A stretch of DNA of 64,000 nucleotides from Chlorops oryzae (taxonomy: Eukaryota > Arthropoda > Insecta > Diptera > Chloropidae): the NCBI GenBank assembly GCA_020466095.1, contig CM035808.1, positions 23,202,296 to 23,266,295 on the forward strand, written 5' to 3'. This document shows positions 11,201 through 61,743 of the stretch, one piece after another. The notes under the pieces are model-generated. The model had not been told where the DNA came from. It ran no database searches and worked only from the letters and a program-made list of their open reading frames with translations. The position numbers and the translations under genes were made by a program. Every line of letters begins with the position of its first letter. Position 1 is the stretch's first letter.

Positions 11201-13964
11201 GAACCATTTAGAAAAAAAAAAATTTTCAAAAACCCTGTAGGAAATGTCATTTTGAGACAGTTGAACCCGAAAAAGAAACCTTATTCAAAAACATATAACG
11301 GCTTTATTTTCCCGCCAAAATGAAAATTCCAAAAAAACTTCAAAAAATAACAAAAAAAACCAAAATTTTCAAAATCCGAAAATTCCCAGTAGTTTCCGAG
11401 ATATAAGCATTTGAAATTTTGGCATCCACCTTCTGTTTTTCCTGTTCGCCTAGTGAATCAGACGAATTTTTTGGAATTGAAATCCGCATTTCTTGGGCAT
11501 AGGATTTTCTCGATAACTAAAGTCTTTTTTGAAACTTCGGCGGTAAGTATGCAATCTTTTGAGTCTCCATCACACTTTGCAATGAATAAAATTTTAATAT
11601 TTCCACGGGTAAGGAAAATGCAAAAAGTGCTTCAAATAGGGGGAAAGCGTGGAATTTTCCAGGAATTTTCTCCATGGGAATTTTCTTTAGGATCTGAGGA
11701 ACCATTTAGAAAAAAAAAAATTTTCAAAAACCCTGTAGGAAATGTCATTTTGAGACAGTTGAACCCGAAAAAGAAACCTTATTCAAAAACATATAACGGC
11801 TTTATTTTCCCGCCAAAATGAAAATTCCAAAAAAACTTCAAAAAATAACAAAAAAACCAAAATTTTCAAAATCCGAAAATTCCCAGTAGTTTCCGAGATA
11901 TAAGCATTTGAAATTTTGGCATCCACCTTCTGTTTTTTGTTCGCCTAGTGAATCAGACGAATTTTTTGGAATTGAAATCCGCATTTCTTGGGCATAGGAT
12001 TTTCTCGATAACTAAAGTCTTTTTTGAAACTTCGGCGGTAAGTATGCAATCTTTTGAGTCTCCATCACACTTTGCAATGAATAAAATTTTAATATTTCCA
12101 CGGGTAAGGAAAATGCAAAAAGTGCTTCAAATAGGGGGAAAGCGTGGAATTTTCCAGGAATTTTCTCCATGGGAATTTTCTTTAGGATCTGAGGAACCAT
12201 TTAGAAAAAAAAATTTTTCAAAAACCCTGTAGGAAATGTCATTTTGAGACAGTTGAACCCGAAAAAGAAACCTTATTCAAAAACATATAACGGCTTTATT
12301 TTCCCGCCAAAAATGAAAATTCCAAAAAAACTTCAAAAAATAACAAAAAAACCAAATTTTCAAAATCCGAAAATTCCCAGTAGTTTCCGAGATATAAGCA
12401 TTTGAAATTTTGGCATCCACCTTCTGTTTTTCCTGTTCGCCTAGTGAATCAGACGAATTTTTTGGAATTGAAATCCGCATTTCTTGGGCATAGGATTTTC
12501 TCGATAACTAAAGTCTTTTTTGAAACTTCGGCGGTAAGTATGCAATCTTTTGAGTCTCCATCACACTTTGCAATGAATAAAATTTTAATATTTCCACGGG
12601 TAAGGAAAATGCAAAAAGTGCTTCAAATAGGGGGAAAGCGTGGAATTTTCCAGGAATTTTCTCCATGGGAATTTTCTTTAGGATCTGAGGAACCATTTAG
12701 AAAAAAAAAATTTTCAAAAACCCTGTAGGAAATGTCATTTTGAGACAGTTGAACCCGAAAAAGAAACCTTATTCAAAAACATATAACGGCTTTATTTTCC
12801 CGCCAAAATGAAAATTCCAAAAAAACTTAAAAAATAACAAAAAAAACCAAAATTTTCAAAATCCGAAAATTCCCAGTAGTTTCCGAGATATAAGCATTGG
12901 AAATTTTGGCATCCACCTTCTGTTTTTCCTGTTCGCCTAGTGAATCAGACGAATTTTTTGGAATTGAAATCCGCATTTCTTGGGCATAGGATTTTCTCGA
13001 TAACTAAAGTCTTTTTTGAAACTTCGGCGGTAAGTATGCAATCTTTTGAGTATCCGTCACACTTTGCAATGAATAAAATTTTAATATTTCCACGGGTAAG
13101 GAAAATGCAAAAAGTGCTTCAAATAGGGGGAAAGCGTGGAATTTTCCAGGAATTTTCTCCATGGGAATTTTCTTTAGGATCTGAGGAACCATTTAGAAAA
13201 AAAAAATTTTCAAAAACCCTGTAGGAAATGTCATTTTGAGACAGTTGAACCCGAAAAAGAAACCTTATTCAAAAACATATAACGGCTTTATTTTCCCGCC
13301 AAAATGAAAATTCCAAAAAAACTTCAAAAAATAACAAAAAAAACAAAATTTTCAAAATCCGAAAATTCCCAGTAGTTTCCGAGATATAAGCATTTGAAAT
13401 TTTGGCATCCACCTTCTGTTTTTCCTGTTCGCCTAGTGAATCAGACGAATTTTTTGGAATTGAAATCCGCATTTCTTGGGCATAGGATTTTCTCGATAAC
13501 TAAAGTTTTTTTGAAACTTCGGCGGTAAGTAAGCAATCTTTTGAGTCCCTCACACTTTGCAATGAATAAAATTTTAATATTTCCACGGGTAAGGAAAATG
13601 CAAAAAGTGCTTCAAATAGGGGGAAAGCGTGGAATTTTCCAGGAATTTTCTCCATGGGAATTTTCTTTAGGATCTGAGGAACCATTTAGAAAAAAAAAAA
13701 ATTCAAAAACCCTGTAGGAAATGTCATTTTGAGACAGTTGAACCCGAAAAAGAAACCTTATTCAAAAACATATAACGGCTTTATTTTCCCGCCAAAATGA
13801 AAATTCCAAAAAAAACTTCAAAAAATAACAAAAAAACCAAAATTTTCAAAATCCGAAAATTCCCAGTAGTTTCCGAGATATAAGCATTTGAAATTTTGGC
13901 ATCCACCTTCTGTTTTTCCTGTTCGCCTAGTGAATCAGACGAATTTTTTGGAATTGAAATCCGC
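8222..13964 (+). repeat. satellite array, left arm (about 11.6 monomers of ~495 bp, direct orientation)
   Basis: The motif CGGCGGTAAGTATGC recurs with its GTAAGT at about 8570, 9065, 9560, 10059, 10550, 11045, 11543, 12038, 12534, 13030 and 13525, so the monomer is 491-499 bp. Monomers are nearly identical; most differences are indels in A- or T-homopolymers. The first unit (8222-8700) is clearly more diverged, as expected at an array edge. The last unit is cut off after CCGC at 13964, where the 11-bp minisatellite begins. Every monomer carries open frames of 60-136 codons on both strands; these follow from sequence identity, not from demonstrated coding. No recognised protein motif is encoded. 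Confidence 0.95.
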
Positions 13965-13965
13965 T

Positions 13966-14800
13966 GCACGAAGGCTACACGAAGGCTACACGAAGGCTAT
14001 TCGAAGTTTATACGAAGGCTATACGAATGCCATACGAAGGCTGTACGAAGGCTATACGAAGGCGATACGCAGGCTATACGAAGGCTATACGAAAGCTATA
14101 CGAAGGCTATACGAAGGCTATACGAAGGCTATACGAAGGCTATACGAAGGCTATACAAGGCTATACGAAGGCTAACGAAGGCTATACGAAGGCTATAAAT
14201 TCGAAGGCTATACGAAGGCTTACGAAGGCTATACGAAGGCTTAAATATACGAAGGCTAACGAAGGCTATACGAAGGGCTTACGAAGGCTATACGAAGGCT
14301 ATACGAAGGCTATACGAAGGCTATACGAAGGCTATACGAAGGCTATACGAGGGCTATACGAAGGCTATACGAAGGTTATTCGAAGGCTATACGAAGGCTA
14401 TACGAAGGCTATACGAAGGCTATGCGAAGGCTACACGAAGGCTAACGAAGGCTACACGAAGGCTACACGAAGGCTACACGAAGGCTACACGAAGGCTACA
14501 CGAAGGCTACACGAAGGCTACACGAAGGCTACACGAAGGCTACACGAAGGCTACACGAAGGCTACACGAAGGCTACACGAAGGTTACACGGAGGCAAAAC
14601 GAAGGCTACACGAAGGCTACACGAAGGCTACACGAAGGCTACACGAAGGCTACACGAAGGCTACACGAAGGCTACACGAAGGCTACACAAGGCTACACGA
14701 AGGCCAGGGCTACACGAAGGCTACCGAAGGCTACACGAAGGCTACACGAAGGCTACACGAAGGCACACGAAGGGCTACCAAAGGCTACACGAAGGCTAAA
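13966..14800 (+). repeat. 11-bp minisatellite (consensus ACGAAGGCTAY, about 75 copies)
   Basis: A tandem of the 11-mer GAAGGCTATAC, which shifts after about 14420 to the variant GAAGGCTACAC. Units with 1-2 base indels are scattered through it, most near 14145-14280 and 14690-14790. Because 11 is not a multiple of three, each reading frame cycles through an 11-residue repeat (EGYTKAIRRLY or EGYTKATRRLH), and no frame of the consensus contains a stop. That is why a 329-codon frame runs across the tract. The tract sits exactly between two oppositely oriented satellite arms. Confidence 0.95.
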
Positions 14801-14805
14801 CACTT

Positions 14806-14811
14806 GTTGGT

Positions 14812-14868
<57 letters not shown>

Positions 14869-14941
14869 TGTTATTGTTTTTGTTGTTGTTGTTGTTGTTG
14901 TTTTTGTTGTTGTTGTTGTTGTTTTGTTTTGTTGTTGTTGT

Positions 14942-14980
<39 letters not shown>
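14806..14980 (+). repeat. (TTG)n microsatellite at the centre of the satellite inversion
   Basis: About 58 TTG repeats with a few TTTTG interruptions. The tract ends directly against the reversed satellite at 14981. Leu, Cys and Val homopolymers in the three forward frames, and Thr/Asn/Gln runs on the other strand, are artefacts of this repeat. Confidence 0.97.
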
Positions 14981-14981
<1 letters not shown>

Positions 14982-17900
14982 CATACTTACCGCCGAAGTT
15001 TCAAAAAAGACTTTAGTTATCGAGAAAATCCTATGCCCAAGAAATGCGGATTTCAATTCCAAAAAATTCGTCTGATTCACTAGGCGAACAGGAAAAACAG
15101 AAGGTGGATGCCAAAATTTCAAATGCTTATATCTCGGAAACTACTGGGAATTTTCGGATTTTGAAAATTTTGGTTTTTTGTTATTTTTTGAAGTTTTTTT
15201 GGAATTTTCATTTTGGCGGGAAAATAAAGCCGTTATATGTTTTTGAATAAGGTTTCTTTTTCGGGTTCAACTGTCTCAAAATGACATTTCCTACAGGGTT
15301 TTTGAAAATTTTTTTTTTCTAAATGGTTCCTCAGATCCTAAAGAAAATTCCCATGGAGAAAATTCCTGGAAAATTCCACGCTTTCCCCCTATTTGAAGCA
15401 CTTTTTGCATTTTCCTTACCCGTGGAAATATTAAAATTTTATTCATTGCAAAGTGTGATGGAGACTCAAAAGATTGCATACTTACCGCCGAAGTTTCAAA
15501 AAAGACTTTAGTTATCGAGAAAATCCTATGCCCAAGAAATGCGGATTTCAATTCCAAAAAATTCGTCTGATTCACTAGGCGAACAGGAAAAACAGAAGGT
15601 GGATGCCAAAATTTCAAATGCTTATATCTCGGAAACTACTGGGAATTTTCGGATTTTGAAAATTTTGGTTTTTTTTTATTTTTGAAGTTTTTTTGGAATT
15701 TTCATTTTGGCGGGAAAATAAAGCCGTTATATGTTTTTGAATAAGGTTTCTTTTTCGGGTTCAACTGTCTCAAAATGACATTTCCTACAGGGTTTTTGAG
15801 AATTTTTTTTTCTTAAATGGTTCCTCAGATCCTAAAGAAAATTCCCATGGAGAAAATTCCTGGAAAATTCCACGCTTTCCCCCTATTTGAAGCACTTTTT
15901 GAATTTTCCTTACCCGTGGAAATATTAAAATTTTATTCATTGCAAAGTGTGATGGAGACTCAAAAGATTGCATACTTACCGCCGAAGTTTCAAAAAAGAC
16001 TTTAGTTATCGAGAAAATCCTATGCCCAAGAAATGCGGATTTCAATTCCAAAAATTCGTCTGATTCACTAGGCGAACAGGAAAAACAGAAGGTGGATGCC
16101 AAAATTTCAAATGCTTATATCTCGGAAACTACTGGGAATTTTCGGATTTTGAAAATTTTGGTTTTTTTTGTTATTTTTTGAAGTTTTTTTGGAATTTTCA
16201 TTTTGGCGGGAAAATAAAGCCGTTATATGTTTTTGAATAAGGTTTCTTTTTCGGGTTCAACTGTCTCAAAATGACATTTCCTACAGGGTTTTTGAAAATT
16301 TTTTTTTCTAAATGGTTCCTCAGATCCTAAAGAAAATTCCCATGGAGAAAATTCCTGGAAAATTCCACGCTTTCCCCCTATTTGAAGCACTTTTTGCATT
16401 TTCCTTACCCGTGGAAATATTAAAATTTTATTCATTGCAAAGTGTGACGGAGACTCAAAAGATTGCATACTTACCGCCGAAGTTTCAAAAAAGACTTTAG
16501 TTATCGAGAAAATCCTATGCCCAAGAAATGCGGATTTCAATTCCAAAAAATTCGTCTGATTCACTAGGCGAACAGGAAAAACAGAAGGTGGATGCCAAAA
16601 TTTCAAATGCTTATATCTCGGAAACTACTGGGAATTTTCGGATTTTGAAAATTTTGGTTTTTTTGTTATTTTTTGAAGTTTTTTTGGAATTTTCATTTTG
16701 GCGGGAAAATAAAGCCGTTATATGTTTTTGAATAAGGTTTCTTTTTCGGGTTCAACTGTCTCAAAATGACATTTCCTACAGGGTTTTTGAAAATTTTTTT
16801 TTTTTCTAAATGGTTCCTCAGATCCTAAAGAAAATTCCCATGGAGAAAATTCCTGGAAAATTCCACGCTTTCCCCCTATTTGAAGCACTTTTTGCATTTT
16901 CCTTACCCGTGGAAATATTAAAATTTTATTCATTGCAAAGTGTGATGGAGACTCAAAAGATTGCATACTTACCGCCGAAGTTTCAAAAAAGACTTTAGTT
17001 ATCGAGAAAATCCTATGCCCAAGAAATGCGGATTTCAATTCCAAAAAATTCGTCTGATTCACTAGGCGAACAGGAAAAACAGAAGGTGGATGCCAAAATT
17101 TCAAATGCTTATATCTCGGAAACTACTGGGAATTTTCGGATTTTGAAAATTTTGGTTTTTTTGTTATTTTTTGAAGTTTTTTTGGAATTTTCATTTTGGC
17201 GGGAAAATAAAGCCGTTATATGTTTTTGAATAAGGTTTCTTTTTCGGGTTCAACTGTCTCAAAATGACATTTCCTACAGGGTTTTTGAAATTTTTTTTTT
17301 TCTAAATGGTTCCTCAGATCCTAAAGAAAATTCCCATGGAGAAAATTCCTGGAAAATTCCACGCTTTCCCCCTATTTGAAGCACTTTTTGCATTTTCCTT
17401 ACCCGTGGAAATATTAAAATTTTATTCATTGCAAAGTGTGATGGAGACTCAAAAGATTGCATACTTACCGCCGAAGTTTCAAAAAAGACTTTAGTTATCG
17501 AGAAAATCCTATGCCCAAGAAATGCGGATTTCAATTCCAAAAAATTCGTCTGATTCACTAGGCGAACAGGAAAAACAGAAGGTGGATGCCAAAATTTCAA
17601 ATGCTTATATCTCGGAAACTACTGGGAATTTTCGGATTTTGAAAATTTTGGTTTTTTTTGTTTTTTTTGAAGTTTTTTTGGAATTTTCATTTTGGCGGGA
17701 AAATAAAGCCGTTATATGTTTTTGAATAAGGTTTCTTTTTCGGGTTCAACTGTCTCAAAATGACATTTCCTACAGGGTTTTTGAAAATTTTTTTTTTCTA
17801 AATGGTTCCTCAGATCCTAAAGAAAATTCCCATGGAGAAAATTCCTGGAAAATTCCACGCTTTCCCCCTATTTGAAGCACTTTTTGCATTTTCCTTACCC

Positions 17901-19760
17901 GTGGGAAAAATATTAAAATTTTATTCATTGCAAAGTGTGATGGAGACTCAAAAGATTGCATACTTACCGCCGAAGTTTCAAAAAAGACTTTAGTTATCGA
18001 GAAAATCCTATGCCCAAGAAATGCGGATTTCAATTCCAAAAAATTCGTCTGATTCACTAGGCGAACAGGAAAAACAGAAGGTGGATGCCAAAATTTCAAA
18101 TGCTTATATCTCGGAAACTACTGGGAATTTTGGATTTTGAAAATTTTGGTTTTTTTTGTTATTTTTTGAAGTTTTTTTGGAATTTTCATTTTGGCGGGAA
18201 AATAAAGCCGTTATATGTTTTTGAATAAGGTTTCTTTTTCGGGTTCAACTGTCTCAAAATGACATTTCCTACAGGGTTTTTGAAAATTTTTTTTTCTAAA
18301 TGGTTCCTCAGATCCTAAAGAAAATTCCCATGGAGAAAATTCCTGGAAAATTCCACGCTTTCCCCCTATTTGAAGCACTTTTTGCATTTTCCTTACCCGT
18401 GGAAATATTAAAATTTTATTCATTGCAAAGTGTGATGGAGACTCAAAAGATTGCATACTTACCGCCGAAGTTTCAAAAAAGACTTTAGTTATCGAGAAAA
18501 TCCTATGCCCAAGAAATGCGGATTTCAATTCCAAAAAATTCGTCTGATTCACTAGGCGAACAGGAAAAACAGAAGGTGGATGCCAAAATTTCAAATGCTT
18601 ATATCTCGGAAACTACTGGGAATTTTCGGATTTTGAAAATTTTGGTTTTTTTTTGTTATTTTTTGAAGTTTTTTTGGAATTTTCATTTTGGCGGGAAAAT
18701 AAAGCCGTTATATGTTTTTGAATAAGGTTTCTTTTTCGGGTTCAACTGTCTCAAAATGACATTTCCTACAGGGTTTTTGAAAATTTTTTTTTTCTAAATG
18801 GTTCCTCAGATCCTAAAGAAAATTCCCATGGAGAAAATTCCTGGAAAATTCCACGCTTTCCCCCTATTTGAAGCACTTTTTGCATTTTCCTTACCCGTGG
18901 AAATATTAAAATTTTATTCATTGCAAAGTGTGATGGAGACTCAAAAGATTGCATACTTACCGCCGAAGTTTCAAAAAAGACTTTAGTTATCGAGAAAATC
19001 CTATGCCCAAGAAATGCGGATTTCAATTCCAAAAAATTCGTCTGATTCACTAGGCGAACAGGAAAAACAGAAGGTGGATGCCAAAATTTCAAATGCTTAT
19101 ATCTCGGAAACTACTGGGAATTTTCGGATTTTGAAAATTTTTTTTTTGTTATTTTTTTGAAGTTTTTTTGGAATTTTCATTTTTGGCGGGAAAATAAAGC
19201 CGTTATATGTTTTTGAATAAAGTTTCTTTTTCGGGTTCAACTGTCTCAAAATGACATTTCCTACAGGGTTTTTGAAAATTTTTTTTTTCTTAATGGTTCC
19301 TCAGATCCTAAAGAAAATTCCCATGGAGAAAATTCCTGGAAAATTACGCTTTCCCCCATTTGAAGCACTTTTTGCATTTTCCTTACCCGTGGAAATATTA
19401 AAATTTTATTCATTGCAAAGTGTGATGGAGACTCAAAAGATTGCATACTTACCGCCGAAGTTTCAAAAAAGACTTTAGTTATCGAGAAAATCCTATGCCC
19501 AAGAAATGCGGATTTCAATTCCAAAAAATTCGTCTGATTCACTAGGCGAACAGGAAAAACAGAAGGTGGATGCCAAAATTTCAAATGCTTATATGTCGGA
19601 AACTACTGGGCATTTTTGGGTTTTGAAAATTTTGGTTTTTTTAAATTATTTTTTGAAGTTTTTTTGGAATTTTCATTTTGGCGGGAAAATAAAGCCGTTA
19701 TACTTTTTTGAATAAAGTTTTTTTCGGGTTTAACTGTCTCAAAATGACATTTCCTACAGG
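14982..19760 (-). repeat. satellite array, right arm (about 9.6 monomers of ~495 bp, inverted orientation)
   Basis: The reverse complement of the left-arm monomer repeats with the CTTACCGCCG anchor at 14986, 15481, 15975, 16470, 16968, 17464, 17963, 18458, 18956 and 19448 (period 492-499). The arm opens at CATACTTACC, so it contains about 65 bp of the monomer that the last left-arm unit lacks. The junction is therefore not a simple hairpin. The outermost monomer (19450-19760) is more diverged, mirroring the left edge. Confidence 0.95.
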
Positions 19761-26000: not shown

Positions 26001-29000
26001 ACATAGATGCTCTCAGTACTAATATACAGTACAAATGTAAGGAAAATGGTAGAAAAACAAATCACGCGTACGAATAGAGTGCTTGAACTCCATACATTTC
26101 TTGGTAAATGATAATAGGAGTTCCCCTAGAGCACTGAAATTTTGCATGGACGTTTCATTGAAAATATCTATGAAATTAAAAAAAAATTTTTAGAAATCAA
26201 ACCACCCCAACCCGCTCCCCCATAAAAAGGGGTGGACCCAAATTCCACAATTTTGAACCCACAGTGTTGAACATACAATACAACAAGTGACACTTGGCAA
26301 TGGGGGGAAAAAACCACCGAGACGGGTGAGGGGAGGTGGAAAAATTCTATGGAACATGGACTTTCACCACACAGTTTGGACATTCAACAAAAGCAATACA
26401 GCCGCAAAAAAGTTAAGACTTCCACCAAAACGCGTGTACGTACAATGCCAGTATCACTAACACACAGTCAAGAACAAACTTCAACTCCCCTTGCAGTAAT
26501 GAGCCGGTCAGTTTTCTAAGAAGGACTGGCCTTTGACCGGTCAAAATCCTGCCGGTTATGGCAGTTCGCTCCATCGAATCAGGTTAGCCGGCGGTCGGTA
26601 ATAAAGGGGTTGGTTTAACCCTAGTCCTTATAACCAACTTTTACTACGAGAACGTATAACCAAGTACAGGTGTTGCCAGTAGGAATGTTTTGCAATTTAT
26701 TCATAATTAGTGGTTATTTCTTCAGGATTTCAACTACCTGTCATGAAGGAAATATATTCAACTAAGTGTGAGTAAAAATTGTCCAGTTCCGTTGGGTAGA
26801 ACAGCAATAAAAACCACTTTTCGAGAGAAGCAAAATGAGCGCAGAAGACGCACTCTTTACATGCAAACGTTACTCATGTAAACGGCCAATTTGTTTGCAG
26901 CATTCAAGCACTTTGTTTGTATGCGAAAATTGCAACAATAAAGAAAATAAAAAAATAGCTAAGTTATAAGAAATAATATATATAAATAGAAACATACATT
27001 TACATTATCTTATAACAAAAGAACATTGTTTTATTTATGTAGAAAACTTATCAAATCGCACTAAAAGATAGTGGCCACACCTGTACTTGGATATACGTTT
27101 ATGGGGGTAAGGACATCATAGCTCCTCAATGCCTTGACCCAGCACATCAGTTGAGGTGGCAGTCGTCGCGAATTACCGTAATCTTCCTACATCCGGATTT
27201 TTATAAAATTACATTAAGTGGTTTAGGAGGTACATCACTCCAAAGTGCCCACTGGCCACACTTGTACCCGGTTATAAGGACTAGGGTTAAGGGTAGTCTG
27301 TAAATGACACTTTCATCAACTTAGAATATATATAAGAAATTTTTTGTTTATTTTGATTTGACTATCCCATAAAACCAGACAAAATTACGACAATTGACCC
27401 AAAAAAACTGGCCTATGATTAGCCGTTTTGCGGACTAGTCCCTCCCCAAGGACAGGCCCATGTTAAAAAGGTCAGTTAAATACATTAAAAGTGGAATTAT
27501 GAGGGGACTAGTACTGGTAACATGAAGGACTGACCGAAGGCTACACTTGGGTCAGTCCATATTACTGCAGGATTCCCACAGCTATCAGTCGTTTTCAGTC
27601 GCACTTATATCGACTATTCGCTCTTATGTATTCTTATCAAACCCACAATCAAATTTTTTAAAAAAATGAGAGTGTCACTTGTAGTTTTGTATGGTGTTGA
27701 ATTTCGGAACATAGCTCAATTCAGTTAAAAAAAATGAGAGTTGTTTTTTCTACTTCAAAATTGAGAGCCTCATTTTTTCCACAATTCGTACCGTACCATC
27801 CACAATTTCAATCCGATCGCAATTTCAGCTTGGAGACCTAGTTTTACGAAGCACCTTCTAAGCCATATAGAAAGAATATTTTTAAAAAAATTCTCTCATG
27901 TCACAACAGGGCAAATAAACTCCGAAAATCGAGGAAAACTTGAAAATTTTCTCATTTTTCACAACTGCGAAGCACATTTCTCGAGAACTATAAGCTGAAT
28001 TTTCTTGAAAAATGCATCATTTGATAGATAGTGGTATTGGCTTTGATACGCAACCAGCCAACATCAGTTAATATCTGTTTTTTTTTTTCGTAAAAGTTAA
28101 ACAACTGAAGATTTTTCACAAAATCGAAGGTAGCGCCAAGACTAGAGCTGAGAAAAAATTTTCAAAAATATTCTTTATGTCACCAATACCATCCTAATCT
28201 AACACTCCTAACGAAATCGCGCCAACAAAACCACTGTAAACTAGTGTAATTATTCAATGAAAATGACTGAATGAAGCCATCTTATGTTTTGGGTTAGAAA
28301 CGCCCAATGAACAGAAATTTCTTCAAAAACCGAGAGCTCCCACTGTCCATTCGCATGTCAAGAGGACCAAATAAAGTAATTAAATTTTTAATTTCAATGC
28401 ACGCGCGCAAAACTAATCAACAAAAGCCAATTTTCGGCATGGGTCTTAAGAGATAAGATTCGCAGTCTTCTGTCTATTTTTAATTTTTTTTAAATATATT
28501 TTTAAGCAAACGGGACAGTTTTTGGTACTGATTAAAATTTCTTGCGTGCCAAATAGAAGAAATATTCGAGGCGCAATACCAAGATGGGGGCACACAAAAA
28601 ATTAACAAAATTGAACTTATGTTTTTATCTCGGCTATCGACCTCTCACAAAACTAATGAAAATAGATGGATCAAGTCAAATTTTATTTTTTAAGGAGGTA
28701 TAAAAAAGATACAGCTTTTTAGATTTTTCTTGAATTTTTAAAGAGGATGCGTCCCGTTAAGTCACCCATGTCAACTAAATTTCCTTAAAAATGACACTGG
28801 AAGCACGCATCGAAATGCCTCTTGAACAGTTTTAAAAGCTTTACGAATGAAGAAGGCTATAAACACAAATAAAGGTTGCAGTTCAATAAGACTGTGTAAC
28901 ACGTTAAATTAAACCAAAATTTTAATATAGTTTCTGAAAGTAACATACATGCTCGGTGAATATAGCAACGCCTCATATTTGGTTTAGTCAGAGTGGCTGC

Positions 29001-34927: not shown

Positions 34928-36446
34928 TAATATAAAATCCCAAATGACATATATCAATATTCAGTTAGTATTAAATTATCATAGGCTTGGTATACGTATC
35001 TTACGATAATTACTGGAGATTTTTATTCACAAGAATGTTTTGGACCCTTCCGAACCAACCAAGTGTTGGGTCGATCGTGCTATTAAGGCGACCTTCTGGT
35101 CTAGAGCACGAAAATTAAGGATATTTTCATAATTTTTTTTTGATATGAAACCAAATAAAAAACGGCTTTTTAAGTTTGCAGGATTATTGTTTTATTTATT
35201 GACAATCCGAAAAAAATATTGTATTTTTTTTCTATTTTGAAAATGGCGGCGAAATAGACCCTTTTTTATAAAGTAACCCATGGCGTACACGATTTCGTAA
35301 ATTCGGGTTATCCGAAGAAAAAAAAAAACAAAAATGTATTATTAATCAGAATGAATGCGGCCATATAGTAATATAGGGGCACTTACAACAACAACCGAAT
35401 TCCGTGGTGAACTAGTGATACTATAAGTTTTTGAGTATTCACTTAATTTTGTAACTAAACATACTTCCGATGAAATTTTTTATAGTTTTCTTTCTAATGT
35501 AAAACTTATGGAATTTTGTACCTTTTTCATTCAGAAGAGCTCCAAAAATATATAGTTTATGCATTCTATTTATCATGATATGTCATAAGTACTTGAGCCA
35601 CTAGTGATGTATCGAGCAATTTTAGATATGATATCACTGAATATTTCATATCAGCTGTTCTATAGTGGAATTCAAACTTTTTGATTATCGGTCATATTCG
35701 ACGCATGAGTACTCTGCTTTAGCGTTCCTCAATAATATGAGCAAAATTTACTCTAATTATTTTTAATTGGATAAAAATAACATATTTTGCTGTAAAGTAT
35801 AATGAGTTCTTATGAAAAACCTTTGATTAACACTTATATATATCTGATTTTTAACAAAAATTTTAGTTCATGTTACAAGATTATAAAATATTGGTTAGAC
35901 CGGAACCGGCATTTTCAGGGGGCGTGCTACGTTTTTTGACATATAGGACTATAGGTCTAACTCTTCTTCTTCCTAATCCCTGCAATGTGTTAGAGCTACG
36001 CTGCTTCAACATAGCATATAGCATGAGGAAAAGAGAAGCACGCTATGGCAGCGAAATCTTTAGCTCTGCTGTGGTGAAATGCATTGCCACTTGTATTTTT
36101 TAATTTTGGGCGATTTTCGGGTGCATTACATATAAAATATCTACCAAAATCATAAAATGCCATGAAAAGCTTGAAAAACATAAAACTAATCAAGGATTTC
36201 AATATTGAGGAGAAATAGAAATTGTTCTTTTAGTCCTACCTTGTCCACATAACTTTTTGATCACACTGTTTCAGCAAAAATACTAAATTCTATGTACAAT
36301 CAAATTCGTAGCCGTAGTCAAAAATGTATGTAAATTTATTACAAAATGAAAACATTCGCGCACATTGAGCAAAAACATATCGTAATATATTTATTAAAGT
36401 TTCAATTATGAACTTTTCAAGCAATATAAAAACCGAGCCGACGCCG

Positions 36447-39001
36447 CACAGTGTGCCGACTCCATACATTGCTTGGCCAAAAATAGAAGGAGTTGTCGTA
36501 GAGCAATGAAATTTGGCATGGAGGTTTATTTTTATAAAATTAAGAAATTTTAAAAAAATTGTAAAAATCCGACCACCCCAACCCCCACCCCCCATGTAAA
36601 GGGGGGACCCAAATTCCGCAATTTTAGTCCTACAGACTTGAAATTTGGAGCAGAGCTTAAATTCCTGCTCTAAAATTGGAAAAATTTAACTTGGGTGGGC
36701 TGCCACGCCCACTTTTTGTGCTACGCCTACTCAAAGTTGGGAGATACAGGGGCAATGAACCCCTGCAAATCGTATAAAACTTTTATAAAAATTGATGAAT
36801 TTCAATTTAATTGTAAAATTCAAACATGTTTTCAATAGAAAAATTTAAAAAGACCAGCCCAGCCTTGCCAAAGAAAAAAAAGCGAGGTGGAAAAAACAGT
36901 GAATTTCAATGTATAAATCCCATATATTTGATACTGACGCTTACGTTATTCTTGAATTGTAGAGCTTTTTTATTTGATAAATTTCAAAGGAATAACTCAC
37001 AATTAAATTTCTTTGCGTTTTTAACGTTCACATAAGGTGTAGTAAAAAGATATATAGCTTATTAAGCCATATAAAACTTGTAGTTATAATGCAAATATCA
37101 TCTAAATTAAAGAACAAAGTATTATTTGAAAGGTAATTAAGTTGAGTTTATTCCATTGGTTTTTTTTAAGAGATATTAAATTTTTACTTATGCTTTTTTA
37201 AGTGCAGCTATGTATACATATACATTTTTATTTAAATTTATTCTAAGATTTAATCATCTGAAGAGCTGCAGTTAGAATCTTCCGATAAAAAGTCTTCCAA
37301 ATCTATTTCTAAAGAAGAATCCGAATCCGTTTCATCGTTTTGTTCTACCAAAATATATGCTTTAATTTCTTCATTGGAGATCTTTCCTTTTTGCTTCAAT
37401 TTTCTATATTTTGAAATAAGTGGCTCCGAAGACAACAGTAAATTTAAAACGTCTCTGTTAGCTGCCTCTCTGGAACATTTACGGGCTTTTTGCAATCTAG
37501 GATATCTGAATTCCTTATGCCGAGCCTCTAGTGCATCTTCCGACAGCATACCGATTGGGAGGAGAAAATGCTTTATAATGTCAATGCCATGACACAGAAC
37601 TTTATGCACTTTAACTGGCATATAGTACCAGTCATACAGTGTGATATACAAACTATATGTATTGTTTAGCAAAATACTAAATGTTTTAATATTTATAGCT
37701 GCACCACATGACAACACTTTTAAAATTGAAGCGAAATTTTTTATTAAATTAATATCAATATCTGTAATTTTGGAAGAAATTTCAGCGTTATTGAAAAAAT
37801 TTCTTGCTGTATTTCCGTCATTTGAGGTTCCATATCCTGTTCTGACTTTATCCACAATCAAGCCCAACTCAGATCTGAATAGACTACAAATTTTACTCTT
37901 TTTGCGTTTTGTTTTTATACCATATTCTGCTATAGTTTTTATATATTGCTAAATACTTAATTATATTTAGTGTTGACAACCACCTTAAATTATAACTAAT
38001 AATGTAAAATAAGTTAAACTTCAACATTTTAGCCGTTGTGTTTGAATATACGCTTTCGAACTGTGTTCAATTGTTGGTAATTAGTGCATTTCCGCCTGTA
38101 TTTTGGACCTTTACGAAAACTTGTATAACTCCGAAATCGCAACGAATTTTAATATAATTTTTTTTTTTATTTTTAGAAGATATCATAGGCAATAAAATAT
38201 CAAAAATTTGAGGAGGTCATTTTTTTAAAATTTTTAAAAAATCTTTTGAAATTTGCATAGTTTTTGCATTTTTCCCAATATTTTTACCTATTTCACATGC
38301 ATATTTTTACATTGTTCAATAGAAACATTAACAAAAACAATATAAATTATTAAATTTTAGGGTTTTTTCTTTCATACAATATATATTTTGTATAAACTTA
38401 TTTGCAAAATTTCCTGGTATTTGTTTGTATGTGCAATTAATAATTTTATAACCTAATTTTAGTGCTCCATAACATGGAACATAAATCCGAAATCGCAACA
38501 AATTTGTTAAATTTTAACTTTTTTTTATGATAAGCGCCTATTACTTAATAACATATAAAAAAATTAGAGAGGTCATATTTCGCATAATTTTTTTTTTCAA
38601 TTTTGAAATTCTGTGAAATGTTCAATTTTTCAGTATTTCACATATTTTTTTAACAGTAATAATATTTTGTATATAATAATAATTTATATACACGAATACT
38701 TTTTTATGATTGTAAATAAGCTACACTTCAATTTGATATATGATACTTGGGTATTTATAGTTGTATACTTACTCTTTATTCGATTTGAACCCGCGCATAT
38801 GCAATAATTGTGCAAAACAACAAAAGTTCACATTTTGCATAAGACAACTTCAAAGGCGTGTTGTGATCGCAAAACTAAAGCTATCGGCAAGAAAATTTGG
38901 GAGTTTCTAATTCAATGTATTCTCTAAGAAGCCATAAAAAAAAATTATTCAAAATCTGCACTTTTATTTTTACTATTTTTGGCCGCACTCGGCACACTGT
39001 G
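36447..39001 (-). mobile_element. Transib transposon (2555 bp) with recombination-signal-like ends
   Basis: The element is bounded by CACAGTG at 36447-36453 and CACTGTG at 38995-39001. CGCCG is duplicated immediately outside at 36442-36446 and 39002-39006. A CACWRTG terminus with a 5-bp GC-rich duplication is the Transib hallmark. Past the heptamer the ends share TGCCGA and the nonamer CCAAAAATA, at 36477-36485 on the left and 38982-38974 read inward on the right. The spacer between heptamer and nonamer is 23 bp on the left and 12 bp on the right. The minus strand encodes the C-terminus of the transposase (37250-37948). The perfect duplication and matched ends indicate a comparatively young insertion; the missing 5' coding half indicates a non-autonomous, internally deleted copy. 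Confidence 0.88.
37250..37948 (-). pseudogene. Transib transposase, C-terminal fragment (RAG1-like catalytic domain)
   Basis: An open frame of about 233 codons, with no in-frame Met needed at its left limit because it is the remnant of a longer protein. It contains GYGTSNDGNTARNFF, then VHKVLCHGIDIIKHFLLPIG, then LSEDALEARHKEFR with KARKCSREA after it. This order corresponds to the RAG1 catalytic core around HKTLAHVPEII and the segment with the third acidic catalytic residue. The Glu of ALEARHK, at codon 37526-37528 on the minus strand, aligns with that catalytic Glu. An acidic Ser/Asp tail precedes the stop. The two upstream catalytic Asp regions are not found in 37950-38990, where no long minus-strand frame exists. 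A typical Transib transposase is several hundred residues longer. The remaining fragment cannot be an active transposase alone. Confidence 0.82.
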
Positions 39002-39351
39002 CGCCGTGTTTCTTTGATAATTTTCTTGCAAGTGGCATCATAGTGCCACTTTTTATCTGCCCGTATTGTTGTTGGTAGCTTTCTGGTGAATTTCTCGAAT
39101 TTGTTGAATTTCCTATTCCTGCTTAAGGTTTTTGTTGGTAGCTTTTGGTGAATATCCCCAATTTGTTGAATTTCCTATGCCTGCCTAATGGTGTATATTC
39201 TCATCGCGGCAGAGGCTTTTCGACGTCGACAGTTAGACCTACAGTCCTACATGGTTTTTGATTTTTCCATAAGAACGCATGCACAGGGGGCCTACTTCAA
39301 TTCAACATACACGTTTTTTGCCAAGTGCCAGCTATAGTACTATATGAATGC

Positions 39352-45911: not shown

Positions 45912-47480
45912 TTAAGCCAAGTGTCGACTATAGATTTATTTACGTAGAGATAGAGAAAAAACTCTCGTGTAGATACGTAGACAAGTGTATACACCCTGTA
46001 GAGCGCACTACACAAGCTCTCTACAAACTCTACTTGAGATAATTATTGGATACAAAAATCTATAGTGTATACATATTTTCATGTAGGGGGTAGAGAGATA
46101 TATCTGCTCTACACTCTATCAAACACGTTTGATAGTTTTTTTTAAATCTTAAGTAGAGATAGGAATTTGAAATTCAAATCAAACCTACTTCGATTTAAAG
46201 CGCTCCGTTTTTGTTCAACACAAATGTGTTTGATTTGCTATTTTGTGGAAAAATGGCACAACCTCAAAAAAAAAAGCTCCAGGAAAATGTGACTCCAAGT
46301 TGTGGACAAAAAAAAAAAAAAAAAAAATTGTCAATTGATTGACTTATACGCAACGCACAGCGATTTATGGAATACAACTAATGAGAGGTTCAACAATTTC
46401 AAGTAAAGAAGTTTACATCGGCTTAGCCGATATGTGTGCAACCTTTTCCTCTGCTTAAAATATATTAAAACATTACCCTAACAAAAAGTCCTATAGTTTT
46501 CATTGTTCTAGCTTGGAAATCTAGTTATACCTTATCTGTTCCTCGATTTAGCTTCTCAAACTCGAAATTATTATTAAGCACAAATATTCGCGAATGGTGG
46601 TCATGGTCAAATTTTAACCATTAGAGGACATTATATCTAGCTGCAAAATACTCAATTTCAAATAGTGAAAATCAATTTTTGCAAATTTCGCAAATGATGA
46701 TCATGGTCAAGTTTTAACCGTTGGAGAGTATTATATCTAGCTGTAAAAGACTCAATTCAAAACAGTGAAAATCAAATTTTTGCGAATTTCGCGGATGGTG
46801 GTCTTGATCAAATTTTAACCGTTAGAGGACATTTTGTCCAGCTGCGAAATACTCAATTCAAAATAGTGAAAATGATATTTTTGCGAATTTCGCGAATTGT
46901 GGTCATGGTCAAAATTTAACCGTTAGAGGACATTTTGTCTAGCTGCGAAATACTCAATTCAAAATAGTGAAAATGATATTTTTGCGAATTTCGCGAATTG
47001 TGGTCATGGTCAAAATAAAATAAAATAAAAATGACCATATTTAAAGCGATGTCTCAACTTTTTTTCAGCCAAAGCTTAAGCGATCGAGTCACGCTCCCAA
47101 CATTTTCTTTTAGTTCCTAGTTTTTCTTGAGTCAAAAGAACAAGGGCAGCAGAAACTTGGTTTTGGCGACGACTCATTTTAACGGAATGAATTTGAAAAA
47201 TTTTCTTTTAATTTTTGAAATTTTTGAAAATCTCAAAATTTATAGCCGAGCTATACGATTATGCTCTATTACACGATTCTATAGTAGAGAAAAATTCTTC
47301 TGCAGTGTAAACAGGCTGTAGAGCACATAGTAGAGCTCTACTCTAATTATGTCTACGGCAGCTCTACGTAGAGCTGTGGAATTGTAGAAACGGTCTACAG
47401 TGTATACAACAAACGTAGAGTCTCTACACACTACACTCTACTCTCTACCTCAAAAACTCTATAGCCGACACTTGGCTTAA
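45912..47480. mobile_element. TTAA-flanked inverted-repeat element (~0.9 kb) split by a DINE-like insertion
   Basis: TTAAGCCAAGTGTCGACTAT, to 45933, pairs with 47459-47480 at 21 of 22 positions, and each end carries TTAA. The inner flanks are built of CTACGTAGAG/CTCTAC words (45940-46165 and 47270-47455) that are complementary between the halves. The block 46401-47085 belongs to a different, mini-me/DINE-like family and interrupts it. Confidence 0.7.
46401..47085 (+). mobile_element. mini-me/DINE-like element, truncated, with ~101-bp internal tandem
   Basis: It starts AAGTAAAGAAGTTTACATCG GCTTAGCCGA, the same start as the fuller copy at 49221. It then carries five tandem units of about 101 bp; the TCATGGTCAA motif lies at about 46601, 46701, 46802, 46903 and 47004. 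It ends near the CAGCCAAAGCTTAAG motif and lacks the 3' (GACA)n/(TA)n part. Confidence 0.7.
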
Positions 47481-57245: not shown

Positions 57246-60200
57246 TCATGCCACCGGGTTTTCATTGTTCATTGGCGTTTGTTTAATATCGATATGAACC
57301 AATAAAGAAGCCAATTCCAATTCTTCGCTGAATTTATTTCTTAATGTTACACTGCGATATCCCTTTCGAATGCAATTTACAGGATAACTTGCTTGCGCAA
57401 GGAAATGTGTCTCAGCAAACATATCCTCATCGAGTACCTCAAAACGTAGAATAGCCAAATGTGGTGATTTTACCGAAAAGACACAAGTTTCATTCCAAAT
57501 AGGATTGAATCCATTTTCACTAACTTTTGTTCGATGTTTAATACCTGAGTCGAAACCGGTTCCACATACTTCAATCACCACAAGGGGATTATTCGATTTT
57601 CCACCGCGAAATAGATGGCGAGCTGCAATTATACGTATTGTTAAAGTCTTCTCTTCGAACGTGTTCAACGATGCTGCATTATTTGGATCGAAGCCTTCAG
57701 TTTGCATAAATTTCGGTTTCAAAAGATAACCACATTGACCGTTATCACGGAATTTGGCCTGATTTAATTGCATGGCTTTATCGCCAGTTTGATAGTTCAG
57801 TGCTATCATTTGGGAACCGACATTCCAAAATGGTATCGGGTTGAAATTTGATGAGTCCAATCGCTGTCCTTTGGGATAAACGCGACTAATTTGATTTCGA
57901 TGATAAGAGATAATTAGAAACATATTTTGCTGAAGGAATAATTTCTCTGCTTTGGTTTCAGGAAAGCTAGACATTTCATAAAAGACCCATGAATGCTCTC
58001 GGAATGGTACACTTCGAAAATATATAATTAAATCAGACATTTCTTTTGCTACGCGTGCTGAGCGTTCTTTTTTGCGGCGTTCAGTTGCCAATTGATTGGC
58101 AATTTGCGCTGCCTCCTGTATGGCCTTAATCCATTCGTAGGCCAATTCCTGATTATCGAATCCGATAACGAAAGAATTTTGTGTTGTCGGTGTTTGAATT
58201 TCTAACGTCATCAATATATTTTGCTCATTCGATTCAAACAAGGATGCGATTGCCCCTTGAATTTCAATTGAATCTGTATGCGAATAGCTTTCACCGCTGT
58301 TCTCACTGTTAAAGGTGTTGTAATCATCGATAGCGCTGTCTATGACCTGCAACGTATAAATTAAAAATTTTTTTTTTTTTGTTTCTTCCATGAAATCCTT
58401 CTAATAGACGTCGTTTTTTTTTTAACAAAAAAAAAAATATGCATACCTTAACATAGTTCGCAGGAAAATGACGCTGAATCATGCCGCCATAGTCTCCACG
58501 CCACCACATAGTGCTATTTCTTTGGACATTCGTTATAATAGCATGTTTTGGGAATGATAACTCATCGGGCTTATCTGCTTTGTAGCTATATAACGCCTTG
58601 CAAGTAACTCGATCGTTCAGACATGGATCCATATAGCTTGATGCATCACCGAAGTCATTGCCGTTTTGATGCTCCAGCATTGCTTGACAAGCGAGTAATT
58701 TCTGCCGCAGCATTTCCTGCGAAACTGGATACAGAAGCTTAACATTACGATAGAGCGGAGTACGTGTATAATGATTGACCAACGATACTAATGATTCGAA
58801 TTGCGTTGTGTCGACTATATAAAGTCGACCTTCTTGTATAATGCGACAATGCTTGACTTTACGATTTATTGTGAATGAAATCACAAAAGCATTCGAGCTC
58901 TGTACCGATGGCCGCACAAGAAACGATCCAACATCTAGTTTTATGAGAACTTGTTCGGCTTGTTCTTTGGTTGTGTTCGGATGAAACCATTCTTGCGATT
59001 CATGTTTTTTTGGTTGAGGTACTGGCTCTTTCAATGTTATGGAGAACTCAGAGCTGCGTAACATATTTTTACGATAGTAAACTATAAGCGAGTAAAGCGA
59101 ATCGAAGACGAAATTATCAACTAAGTAATATTTTGTTGTGCCATTTTCATGTTTCAGTTTTATGCGACAATGATTCGGACGATTGCGACGCCAAAATGAA
59201 AGACTGTAATCGCCAACGAATGTTGCAGATTCACGAACAAGGAACGTTCCATCACCCAAATGTTTGTAGGCCTCTAGTAGCTCATCAGCTTCTTGCCGGC
59301 CACCTTCAAGACAATAAATTTTGCGTGATAATGAAAATAAACTATGAAGCATTATTGTATAAATGTGTCGGCACTGGCACTTAATGTCCATTGAAGAGAT
59401 CTGATGTTGAAGACAATAAAGCGTGAACTCACCTTCCAGTTTTCCGTGAAACCAATTTTCACCAAAATGCAGTTCATCATTAATTAAATGATCCTTTTGC
59501 TTTGGTAAGATCGCCGTCGAGAATGCGTTTTGTGCGTTGTTATCATCGTCGTCACGCTGATCTGCAGTTTCGGACGAGTAGATGAGTTGTTGCTGGGTTA
59601 ATACAAATTGATATAGATTCCATGTTTTATCCACTGGATCTTTAAAGTAAAGCATTCCTTTTTTCAGATAATTCCGTGCATTATCATTTTCGTCGCCAGC
59701 TCCGCCGCTTATAGACGAACGACTGCCTATGCTTAAAGATGACATGGCTGAACCGCTACTAATTGCTGAACTACCAGAATTGTCTTCGAATTCTGGCAGC
59801 TTTTTATGTTTAAGTATTATTTTATATCGCAGTTGATATGGTGACGGCAACTGCGTTTCTGTCCGATCGCAACGCTGAGTTAATAACATATCACCAAAAA
59901 CCTACAATAGAGTATAGTTTTTATTTATTTATTAAAAAGAAAAACTCCTGTCGTTTTTCACATATGTAGCATTGCTGCTGTAGTTCTCGTTTTACCTCAA
60001 TAAGTGCCTGCGCCATATTTCTCTGTTGTTCCAATGAGCAATTTTGTTCGATAGACAATATAACTGGATACTCCGATGTCACAAAAGCATGTTCCTTTAT
60101 TGTTTTAATAACGTCTTTGAATTTTATTTTCGACGTCATTGTATGTCCGTGAAATATATTGGGTAAATTATCTGGCCCATTCCAGCAGTCAAGCTCAATG

Positions 60201-61261
60201 CAACGGCAACCCATTCTTAGAGCGCGTGCATAAGCTTCACAAGAAGATTCGCTAGAGAATTGATCGCCCGTTAGATAAGTATTATGCGATGATGCGATCC
60301 AATACGATGACAATGATTGTTTCATATCCATATAGATACGATCGGAATTTGGATCCCAAACGTCGTTTTGTTTGGAGAAAAGAAAATCAAGGAATTCGCT
60401 CGAAGTCAGAAAAGGTTCTTCTACATCACGTTCGATGTCTTGTATAAAATCGCGTATAAAATTCGATACACTCGAAGCATCATCCCAAGTACTTAATTCA
60501 CGTTGTTCTTTTTGCAGAAAGCTTTGGAATTCATGCAGCGTTACTGTTTGCTTGCCATTGGAACAGGCAAATTCACCAGGAACATGCGAAATGTATGCTT
60601 CCAAGAAATTTGCTGGTAGTTCAAGCAATTTTCGATACAATCGTGAGAAGTCATCAAAGCGTAAATCATTTTTCCGACGAACATCATCTTCCGAGCAGTA
60701 TTCCATTACTTTACTAGTCGAGATTTTACAGCCCAGAGTCGAGATTAAAAATGACTTAAAGTCCTTTACGGTAACCTGACCGCCATCCTTTGGTGATTGT
60801 GTATTAGCGTTCTCAATGGAATAGAATTCTCGACGTAGCCAACGTTCCACCTGCAGTGGATAAGGTGCGTTTGTTGTGTCTTTAACCATGTAACGTAGGC
60901 CACGCACCCAGTTTTCTGCTTCAAGCTCAGACAGCGCAACGACGGAAAACGCTTTTAACTTGAAAGAACTGCCATGCAAGAGTACAAAGCATTTTCCAGC
61001 TTCAAAACGTTCGTCGGGACAGTTGCGGAATTCTTTGGAGTTTTTTCCAGTTCGTATTTCGCGGACTTCACGCAATTCCAGAGATCCTTCGAATTCCGTA
61101 CGCGGGTTAGCTGATAACGGCGACCACAACAGTTGCCTGGTTTCACGAATTAATATCAGTCTTCTTTGCTCTGGGCGACGTTGCTTCATTGTTGTGATGA
61201 TGGTGCCACGCTCCAGCAAGCAAATGGTCTGCTCCATCTCACTTAACGGTAGGAAATTCAT
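57246..61261 (-). CDS. sl: phospholipase C gamma (small wing)
   Basis: PLC-gamma hydrolyses PIP2 to IP3 and diacylglycerol downstream of receptor tyrosine kinases, at the plasma membrane. Four exons fit: 61261-59996, 59901-59433, 59303-58447 and 58346-57246, giving 1230 residues (fly PLC-gamma ~1236). Domain order: N-terminal PH (from about residue 10), EF-hand region, X-box with catalytic His in ASSHNTYLTGDQ (His about 326) and NIFHGHTMTS (about 371), split PH, N-SH2 (NWFHGKLEG then GTFLVRESATFVGDYSLSFW), C-SH2 (EWFHPNTTKEQAEQ, GSFLVRPS), SH3 (CKALYSYKADKPDELSFP, FPANYVK), second half of PH, Y-box (MSDLIIYFRSVPF), and C2 (LTIRIIAARHLFRGG, NPIWNETCVF). The intron at 59304-59432 has consensus splice sites but is 129 bp long and stop-free, so an unspliced reading also stays open; retention would insert 43 residues into N-SH2. 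Confidence 0.95.
59304..59432 (-). other. sl: 129-bp stop-free, frame-preserving intron inside the PLC-gamma N-SH2 domain
   Basis: On the minus strand the exon ends CTGGAAG at 59433, followed by donor GTGAGT. The acceptor TGTCTTGAAG ends at 59304, and coding resumes with GTGGCCGG at 59303. Splicing joins HGKLEG directly to GRQEADELL, which matches the SH2 pattern of the family. The 43 translated codons (Cys/His-rich, for example QCRHIYTIM) do not resemble any SH2 segment. Confidence 0.85.
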
Positions 61262-61743
61262 TTTAGGGCATTACTTTACGTCCGTTTTTTGGAGTTTCGC
61301 TGAAATTCTGTTTGTTTACGTAAAACGGCCTTCTAGTTCCAAAATTGCGACAATGCGAAAACACTGTGTGTACATTAGAGCTGCTGACAGTGCTGTCAGA
61401 CTCTTTAAAAGCGAAATCCCCCAATCTTGGAAAAATCCGTTTTTTTCATTAATTTTTCCCACGAAATTCCCTTACAAATCTTTGATTCGTTGAATTATTG
61501 AAAGTTCTATGGCCGCCATATAAAATAGGTCATAGCTAATATTTTTCAAAGCTTAGATCTCATATTTTATATGCGCCGTTTGCTCATAAAATTGAGTTTT
61601 TTTATGTGATTCGCTGGCGTAAATAAGCGAGATTTCGTTTATATGATTTCTCAGGCTATATATGTGCAAGAAAACGTGAATTTTTCGTCCACGAATATAA
61701 CGAGAAACCCCTATGATTCCGAAACAGTTTAATTCTTAAATAT
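61262..61743. other. upstream region of PLC-gamma
   Basis: This should contain the 5' UTR and promoter of the minus-strand PLC-gamma gene. No core promoter motif is clear, and no other gene is recognised. Confidence 0.4.

What the first reader, a model, noticed from the sequence alone, without database searches (positions are those of the whole stretch)
36447..39001. Transib element whose two ends reproduce the 12/23 recombination-signal layout
Seen: CGCCG duplicated on both sides; heptamer CACAGTG at both ends; identical nonamer CCAAAAATA at both ends; spacer exactly 23 bp on the left (36454-36476) and exactly 12 bp on the right (38983-38994). Known: Transib is the family from which RAG1 and V(D)J recombination signals are thought to derive; CACAGTG is the consensus RSS heptamer and the RSS nonamer is also A-rich. 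Inference: an asymmetric 12/23 terminus in an insect transposon bears on whether the 12/23 rule predates adaptive immunity. The nonamer matches the RSS consensus at only 6 of 9 positions, and asymmetric spacing may already be known for some Transib families.
Basis: partly seen in the sequence, partly recalled or inferred. Interest (0 to 1): 0.88.

Follow-up and report, generated by a model that had tools for sequence, protein, structure and literature searches.

The report
Insect Transib transposon with 12/23 ends
A jumping gene in an insect genome carries at its two ends the same lopsided short-and-long DNA signal layout that our immune cells use to cut and paste antibody genes; the layout is real and shared by other copies and by some sister families, but this kind of end was already described in fruit fly and mosquito elements.

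Summary
The element (36447-39001, duplications CGCCG) is an internally deleted Transib keeping only the C-terminal part of its transposase. In its own genome, a pattern allowing any gap of 0-30 between the two shared end blocks matched 68 sites: 38 with spacer 23, 30 with spacer 12, no other. In the copies read, the left end had 23 bp in 40 of 40, the right end 12 bp in 40 of 41, and duplications were identical in 29 of 32 copies with both ends. Four sister families, one copy each, with long open transposase frames (36-55% identical to one another) also have 12/23 ends, always 12 at the transposase's 5' end; a fifth family with both ends found does not. The family's transposase had a GRPR motif that aligns, weakly, with the start of RAG1's nonamer-binding domain. 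The kind is known: 12/23 ends in Transib (2005, read second-hand) and the GRP domain (2022). New here are this family, the copy counts and the shared polarity. Whether the enzyme demands 12/23 pairs is untested.

The parts
36442..36446 (.). left target-site duplication CGCCG
   Evidence: 29 of 32 both-ended copies have identical 5-bp duplications
36447..36453 (+). heptamer CACAGTG of the 23-spacer end (3' of the transposase)
36454..36476 (+). 23-bp spacer TGCCGACTCCATACATTGCTTGG
   Evidence: length 23 in 40 of 40 copies, window included
36477..36485 (+). nonamer-like block CCAAAAATA
   Evidence: identical in 38 of 40 left ends, one mismatch in 2
36486..36513 (+). block just inside the 23 end (GAAGGAGTTGTCGTAGAGCAATGAAATT), alike in six families, no counterpart seen inside the 12 end
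   Evidence: mean pairwise identity 0.81 against 0.53 for the stretch inside the 12 end; a later stretch of the 23 end (positions 101-150) is also fairly alike, 0.70
36447..39001 (-). whole internally deleted Transib copy (2555 bp); the transposase reads on the - strand, so the right end is its 5' end and the left end its 3' end
37250..37948 (-). C-terminal remnant of the Transib transposase (232-aa stretch between stops), aligned to HzTransib chain positions 306-462 plus an acidic tail; the two catalytic aspartates lie in the missing part
   Evidence: catalytic D126, D225, E436 from a passage of PMC6941560; the offset between chain and protein numbering is my inference
38974..38982 (-). nonamer-like block CCAAAAATA of the 12-spacer end (5' of the transposase)
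38983..38994 (-). 12-bp spacer TGCCGAGTGCGG
   Evidence: exactly 12 in 40 of 41 right ends
38995..39001 (-). heptamer CACAGTG of the 12-spacer end
39002..39006 (.). right target-site duplication CGCCG
26075..26271 (+). older copy of the 23-type end (77% identical over 26087-26271): degraded heptamer TAGAGTG, 23 bp, then TAAATGATA

Best explanation
It is a non-autonomous, internally deleted member of a Transib DNA-transposon family whose two ends are fixed as a 12-type end (5' of the transposase gene) and a 23-type end (3'). SHOWN: the layout, its fixation across the copies read, 5-bp GC-rich duplications, the same polarity in four sister families, and a GRPR motif in the family's transposase. 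INFERRED: a transposase dimer holds the two heptamers with its catalytic core and the A-tract 'nonamers' with a mobile N-terminal GRPR module; one 12 and one 23 end make a productive pair; it cuts next to CAC with hairpins on the flanking DNA and inserts the ends with a 5-bp stagger. This copy makes no working enzyme and would have to be moved in trans.
For: 68 of 68 open-gap pattern matches have spacer 12 or 23, reversed control 0; 40 of 40 left ends 23, 40 of 41 right ends 12; identical duplications in 29 of 32 both-ended copies, 35 distinct left flanks among 40 copies; transposase match to 6pqn; four sister families with 12/23 ends, 12 at 5' and 23 at 3' in each; copy L014 joins KPSTSRGRPRTAYDESSERSKRRKVNEI to the window's C-terminal tail, one residue different; a profile of ten Transib N-termini aligns GRP with GGRPR of RAG1 chains, best E 0.0045, mouse RAG1 0.034; GRP in the longest open stretch of 7 of 9 sister loci. 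Hairpin formation by a Transib enzyme is from PMC6941560 (passage).
Against: Pairing was not tested. Family L056 has CACAGTG at both ends, identical duplications and a GRPR motif, but no clear nonamer at 12 or 23. The 12-end nonamer is weak in L051 (CAGAAATTC), and the second element in L017 is 23/11 if both nonamers are put in one register. The RAG1 match is borderline: RAG1 chains range from E 0.0045 to 0.067, one (4wwx_B) at 0.99 without the GRP part, and unrelated importins reach 0.038. No intact copy of this very family was seen: in the listed part, matches of 90% or more to the remnant have open frames of at most 235 aa. PMC8289069 (passage) says that most Transib families have symmetric ends, HzTransib's with little or no nonamer.
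Confidence: 0.78

Rival explanations
1. Asymmetric ends without a 12/23 rule: each end keeps its own spacing because each has its own protein-binding sites, inherited by the families from one ancestor; the transposase does not require unlike partners, and 12 and 23 resemble RSS spacers only because spacings one helical turn apart suit many two-part sites.
For: The 23 end carries a further conserved block that the 12 end lacks, so the ends differ by more than spacing; 23-bp spacers are partly alike in sequence (12-19 of 23 identical between families); L056 lacks the layout; RAG1 without RAG2 shows no preference for 12/23 according to PMC8355894 (section 6).
Against: In the window's family and four sister families the A-tract or its position falls at 12 and 23, and 12-end spacers keep their length with only 3-10 of 12 bases shared.
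Confidence: 0.5
2. The CCAAAAATA blocks are not nonamers but the inner half of a plain inverted repeat in AT-rich DNA, and the 12/23 values are a choice of register.
For: Only 6 of 9 match the RSS nonamer; the shared block is really GGCCAAAAATAG, two bases longer towards the heptamer; the 26-kb copy keeps the spacer (17 of 23) better than the nonamer (5 of 9).
Against: The register is set by aligning one C and five A with the RSS nonamer, not by fitting the spacer; between six families the nonamer block is more alike than the spacer at both ends (0.87 against 0.64 at the 23 end, 0.66 against 0.50 at the 12 end).
Confidence: 0.2
3. Private deletion or chance in a single decayed copy.
For: The 12 end could be derived from the 23 end by removing 11 bp (inspection of the sequences).
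Against: Other copies.
Confidence: 0.01

Closest known systems
Transib families with 12/23 ends (Transib5 of D. melanogaster; Transib2, N1, N2, N3 of An. gambiae; Kapitonov and Jurka 2005 as reported in PMC8355894)
   Same: Transib superfamily, CAC heptamer, A-rich nonamer-like block, spacers 12 and 23 within 1 bp
   Different: Their sequences could not be compared (the 2005 paper and repeat libraries are not held), so whether this is one of those families or a new one is not known; that it is a further family is presumed
HzTransib of Helicoverpa zea (PDB 6pqn and related entries)
   Same: Homologous transposase (E 8.7e-40)
   Different: Symmetric ends with little or no nonamer (PMC8289069 passage); the solved chain matches only downstream of the GRPR region, whether the full protein lacks that region was not seen
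Vertebrate RAG1/RAG2 with 12/23 recombination signals
   Same: Heptamer CACAGTG identical, spacers 12 and 23, A-tract nonamer, GRPR motif upstream of the dimerisation region
   Different: Ends of a transposon, not gene-segment signals; nonamer 6 of 9; pairing rule untested; no RAG2-like gene recognised in the element
ProtoRAG of amphioxus
   Same: Asymmetric ends with two conserved elements each (PMC8289069)
   Different: 27/31 spacers and a RAG2-like partner gene

Membership tests
Transib superfamily | transposase homologous to Transib | tested here: met
   6pqn E 8.7e-40; no Pfam family matched
Transib superfamily | ends begin with CAC (heptamer-like) | tested here: met
   CACAGTG in 39 of 40 left ends (L039 CACTGTG) and 40 of 41 right ends (L026 TACAGTG)
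Transib superfamily | 5-bp GC-rich target duplications | tested here: met
   identical in 29 of 32; 78% GC in 26 distinct-site duplications against 34% for the window
Transib superfamily | full DDE catalytic triad | tested here: not met
   in this copy only the C-terminal part is left, so it counts as a deleted, non-autonomous copy of a Transib, not as a working one; sister loci have long open frames, their catalytic residues were not checked one by one
RSS-like 12/23 signal pair | spacers of 12 and 23 bp | tested here: met
RSS-like 12/23 signal pair | nonamer ACAAAAACC | tested here: inconclusive
   6 of 9 at both ends
RSS-like 12/23 signal pair | only unlike pairs are cut efficiently | not testable with these tools
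   needs a cleavage or transposition assay
RAG1-type nonamer-binding domain in the transposase | GGRPR-like motif upstream of the dimerisation region, with recognisable similarity to RAG1 | tested here: inconclusive
   motif met: in the family's own derivative L014 and in relatives; similarity to RAG1 borderline, E 0.0045-0.067 with importins at 0.038
RAGL / ProtoRAG transposons | RAG2-like gene beside the RAG1-like gene | tested here: inconclusive
   one search lists open frames of 50 aa or more and only one is recognisable, but the copy is deleted, the other frames were not searched and neither was the genome for RAG2-like genes

The most novel reading that the evidence does not exclude
The 12/23 restriction itself, not just the layout, is a property of Transib transposases with a GRPR nonamer-binding module and works without RAG2: the enzyme needs one 12 and one 23 end, 12 always at the gene's 5' side, and this has been kept across families about 36-55% identical in protein. 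Jawed vertebrates would then have inherited the rule with the enzyme.
Probability: 0.25. Interest if true: 0.85.

Novelty: new member of a known kind. Interest (0 to 1): 0.45.

Why it matters
Whether the 12/23 rule came with the transposon or arose in vertebrates is an old question. This genome holds many copies of one Transib family with exact 12/23 ends, and sister families (one copy each read) that have such ends together with long open transposase frames, so the question can be put to an enzyme without RAG2 and with its own natural ends. Family L056, which has the heptamers and a GRPR motif but no clear 12/23 nonamers, offers a natural contrast.

Tried and rejected
Private deletion and chance: rejected by other copies. 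A second full element at 26 kb in the window: only a 23-type end was recognised; after it comes another inverted-repeat element, and no clear Transib sequence was found beyond. Relatives in viral contigs by protein and by end pattern: none (that collection may leave out the window's own genome). Kapitonov and Jurka 2005: not held, so its family list is second-hand. Structure prediction and fold search were not used. Not counted as 12/23 families: L052 and L053 (only a 3' end found, 23-24 bp), L055 and L057 (no ends found), L054 (second copy of the L048 family, only its 23 end in the stretch), and the second element in L017 (1808 bp, duplication GGGCG; 23/12 with nonamers AAAAAAATA and AAAAAATAG, or 23/11 in one register). 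A search for more copies of that L017 element did not complete. 8 of the 40 left-end copies have no right end in the stretches held. Biases: copies were chosen by likeness to the window's ends (40 scored of 1985 candidates for the left, 40 of 117 for the right; 15 of the right-end places were newly fetched, most of the rest lie in copies already read); the pattern leaves the gap free but demands exact blocks. Ends of L049-L051 and L056 were found by requiring like duplications and like heptamers, so their identical duplications are not independent evidence; spacer length was not a criterion there. For L048 the 23 end was found alone and the duplication at the far end then agreed. Six right ends were joined to left ends 6-17 kb away by position and orientation; duplications agree in five of these six.

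Full report
What is there. The element spans 36447-39001 with CGCCG on both sides; all coordinates in the finding are exact. Both ends share CACAGTGTGCCGA and GGCCAAAAATAG; the second block lies 11 bp further in on the left, which gives spacers 23 and 12 when the nonamer is aligned to ACAAAAACC (6 of 9). One coding remnant is recognisable between the ends, 37250-37948 on the - strand, the C-terminal part of a Transib transposase (6pqn, E 8.7e-40, chain 306-462; no Pfam family matched). Neither 37 related proteins nor long relatives and the sister frames found other transposase coding in the window; their next best matches had E 0.085 or worse. The catalytic aspartates (D126 and D225 of HzTransib by a passage of PMC6941560) lie outside the remnant. 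So the copy is non-autonomous, with the 12 end 5' and the 23 end 3' of the transposase.

Is it private to this copy? No. The left end was sought in the window's own genome (442,144,510 bp, 1044 contigs): of 1985 first-look candidates 40 were scored, all matching at 96-100%. I fetched stretches for the 39 other copies. All 40 left ends have a 23-bp spacer; 26 of 40 had a right end in the stretch held, all 26 with 12 bp. A search from the right end scored 40 of 117 candidates; 15 right ends not yet read were fetched: 14 have 12 bp, one reads 13 in the best-matching register because its A-tract has one more A. Together 40 of 41 right ends are exactly 12. Six of the 15 lie 6-17 kb from left ends already read, in the right orientation, so 32 of 40 copies have both ends; 29 of 32 have identical 5-bp duplications, L045 and L046 (which share a flank) differ by one base, and L017 is shifted. 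Flank comparison groups the 40 copies into 35 left-flank sites and the first 26 both-ended ones into 23 right-flank sites. The freest test was a pattern with the two blocks and any gap of 0-30 (spacers 8-38): 68 matches, of which I count from the listing 38 with spacer 23 and 30 with spacer 12, none other; the reversed control gave 0. Duplications prefer C/T-G-N-C-G and are 78% GC (26 distinct sites; window 34%), in line with the GC bias described for Transib and RAG in PMC8289069 (passage).

Is it kept across families? A long Transib protein (P0040) gave 95 matches in this genome, many in open frames of 551-730 aa without stops (81 of 1330 candidates scored). I read the surroundings of ten such loci, L048-L057, two of them (L048, L054) of one family. 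Four families have both ends with 12/23 spacing and identical duplications: L048 with L058 (CGACA), L049 (TGTCG), L050 (GGCCG), L051 (CGTCG). The ends of L049-L051 were found by requiring like duplications and heptamers, not by spacer. In all four, as in the window, 12 is at the transposase's 5' end and 23 at its 3' end. These transposases are 36-55% identical to each other. Against: L056 (715-aa frame) has CACAGTG at both ends and duplication CTCTG but no clear nonamer at 12 or 23; L051's 12-end nonamer is weak; L052 and L053 gave only a 3' end, 23-24 bp; L055 and L057 gave no ends. A second element inside L017 (GGGCG twice) is 23/12, or 23/11 in one register. An older copy of the 23 end in the window itself, 77% identical, keeps 23 bp between a degraded heptamer and a degraded nonamer.

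How it may work. The catalytic core is Transib. Among 152 transposase relatives held (one search listed only 120 of 610), 38 contain the KWGFDG motif around the first catalytic aspartate; 16 of these have at least 140 residues before it, and 11 of the 16 carry GRP there, about 130-175 residues upstream. GRP is in the longest open stretch of 7 of 9 sister loci, not in L055 and L057. Copy L014, a different deletion of this very family, still encodes KPSTSRGRPRTAYDESSERSKRRKVNEI fused to the window's C-terminal tail with one residue different. A profile of ten of the twelve GRP-bearing N-termini aligns GRP with GGRPR of RAG1 chains (E 0.0045 to 0.067; one RAG1 chain at 0.99 without that part; importins reach 0.038, so this alone is weak) and matches HzTransib only downstream of it. 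PMC9435367 (passage) had already reported an equivalent nonamer-binding domain with GRP in both Transib subgroups. I therefore think that the A-tracts are read by this module and the heptamers by the core, as in RAG1; this is inference. Just inside the 23 end lies a block alike in six families (identity 0.81; the following stretch 68-100 is 0.56, but 101-150 is 0.70) with no counterpart inside the 12 end (0.53); it may be a further transposase site or something else.

What is known. PMC8355894 (passages and section 6) cites Kapitonov and Jurka 2005 for 12/23 ends in five Transib families; that paper is not held and was not read. PMC8289069 (passages) says most Transib families have symmetric ends. 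PMC9435367 (passages) describes asymmetric ends as general in one subgroup and present in the other. PMC7204232, PMC4411706, PMC6941560 and PMC11844651 were seen as passages only. Seven library searches were answered; in their listings and in the passages seen I met no report of a shared 12-at-5', 23-at-3' polarity, but none was aimed at that alone and the library lacks most subscription papers, so this is a weak statement.

Verdict. A true and well-kept 12/23 layout in an insect Transib family and at least four sister families; a new member of a known kind, useful as a test bed for the origin of the 12/23 rule.

Noticed in passing
G000 (own genome), places listed: Many Transib frames of 551-730 aa without stops, in several families; six matches of 550-569 aa (L051 family) have almost equal scores and may be near-identical copies (not aligned). 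Transib looks recently active here.
   Followed up: partly
window 36486-36513 and the 3' ends of L048, L049, L050, L051 and the second element of L017: Conserved block GAAGGAGTnGTCGnAGAGCAnnGAAATT just inside the 23 end only; function unknown.
   Followed up: partly
window 26272-27693: Inverted-repeat arms (CATACAATACAACAAGTGACACT and its near-complement, 91%) directly after the older Transib end: probably another element inserted there.
   Followed up: no
window 8226-19760: Two arrays of a 495-496-bp unit (11.6 and 9.6 copies), with their open frames on opposite strands, separated by an 11-bp array ACGAAGGCTAT (about 77 copies) and a TTG run: it looks like a large inverted satellite.
   Followed up: no
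window 46587-47014: 101-bp tandem repeat, 4.2 copies.
   Followed up: no
window 59921-61270 (-): Part of a PLC-gamma gene (best named hit Anopheles maculatus, 58%); neighbouring open frames at 57246-59901 may be further exons (not searched).
   Followed up: partly
L009 (G000:C1:92949300-92954900) and window: Two copies share flanks (86-95%) and duplication CGCCG but differ in length (3720 and 2555 bp): perhaps a host repeat that carried the Transib along.
   Followed up: no
L056, ends at 696 and 3471: Transib family with CACAGTG at both ends, duplication CTCTG and a GRPR motif but no clear 12/23 nonamers.
   Followed up: partly
   Followed up: no
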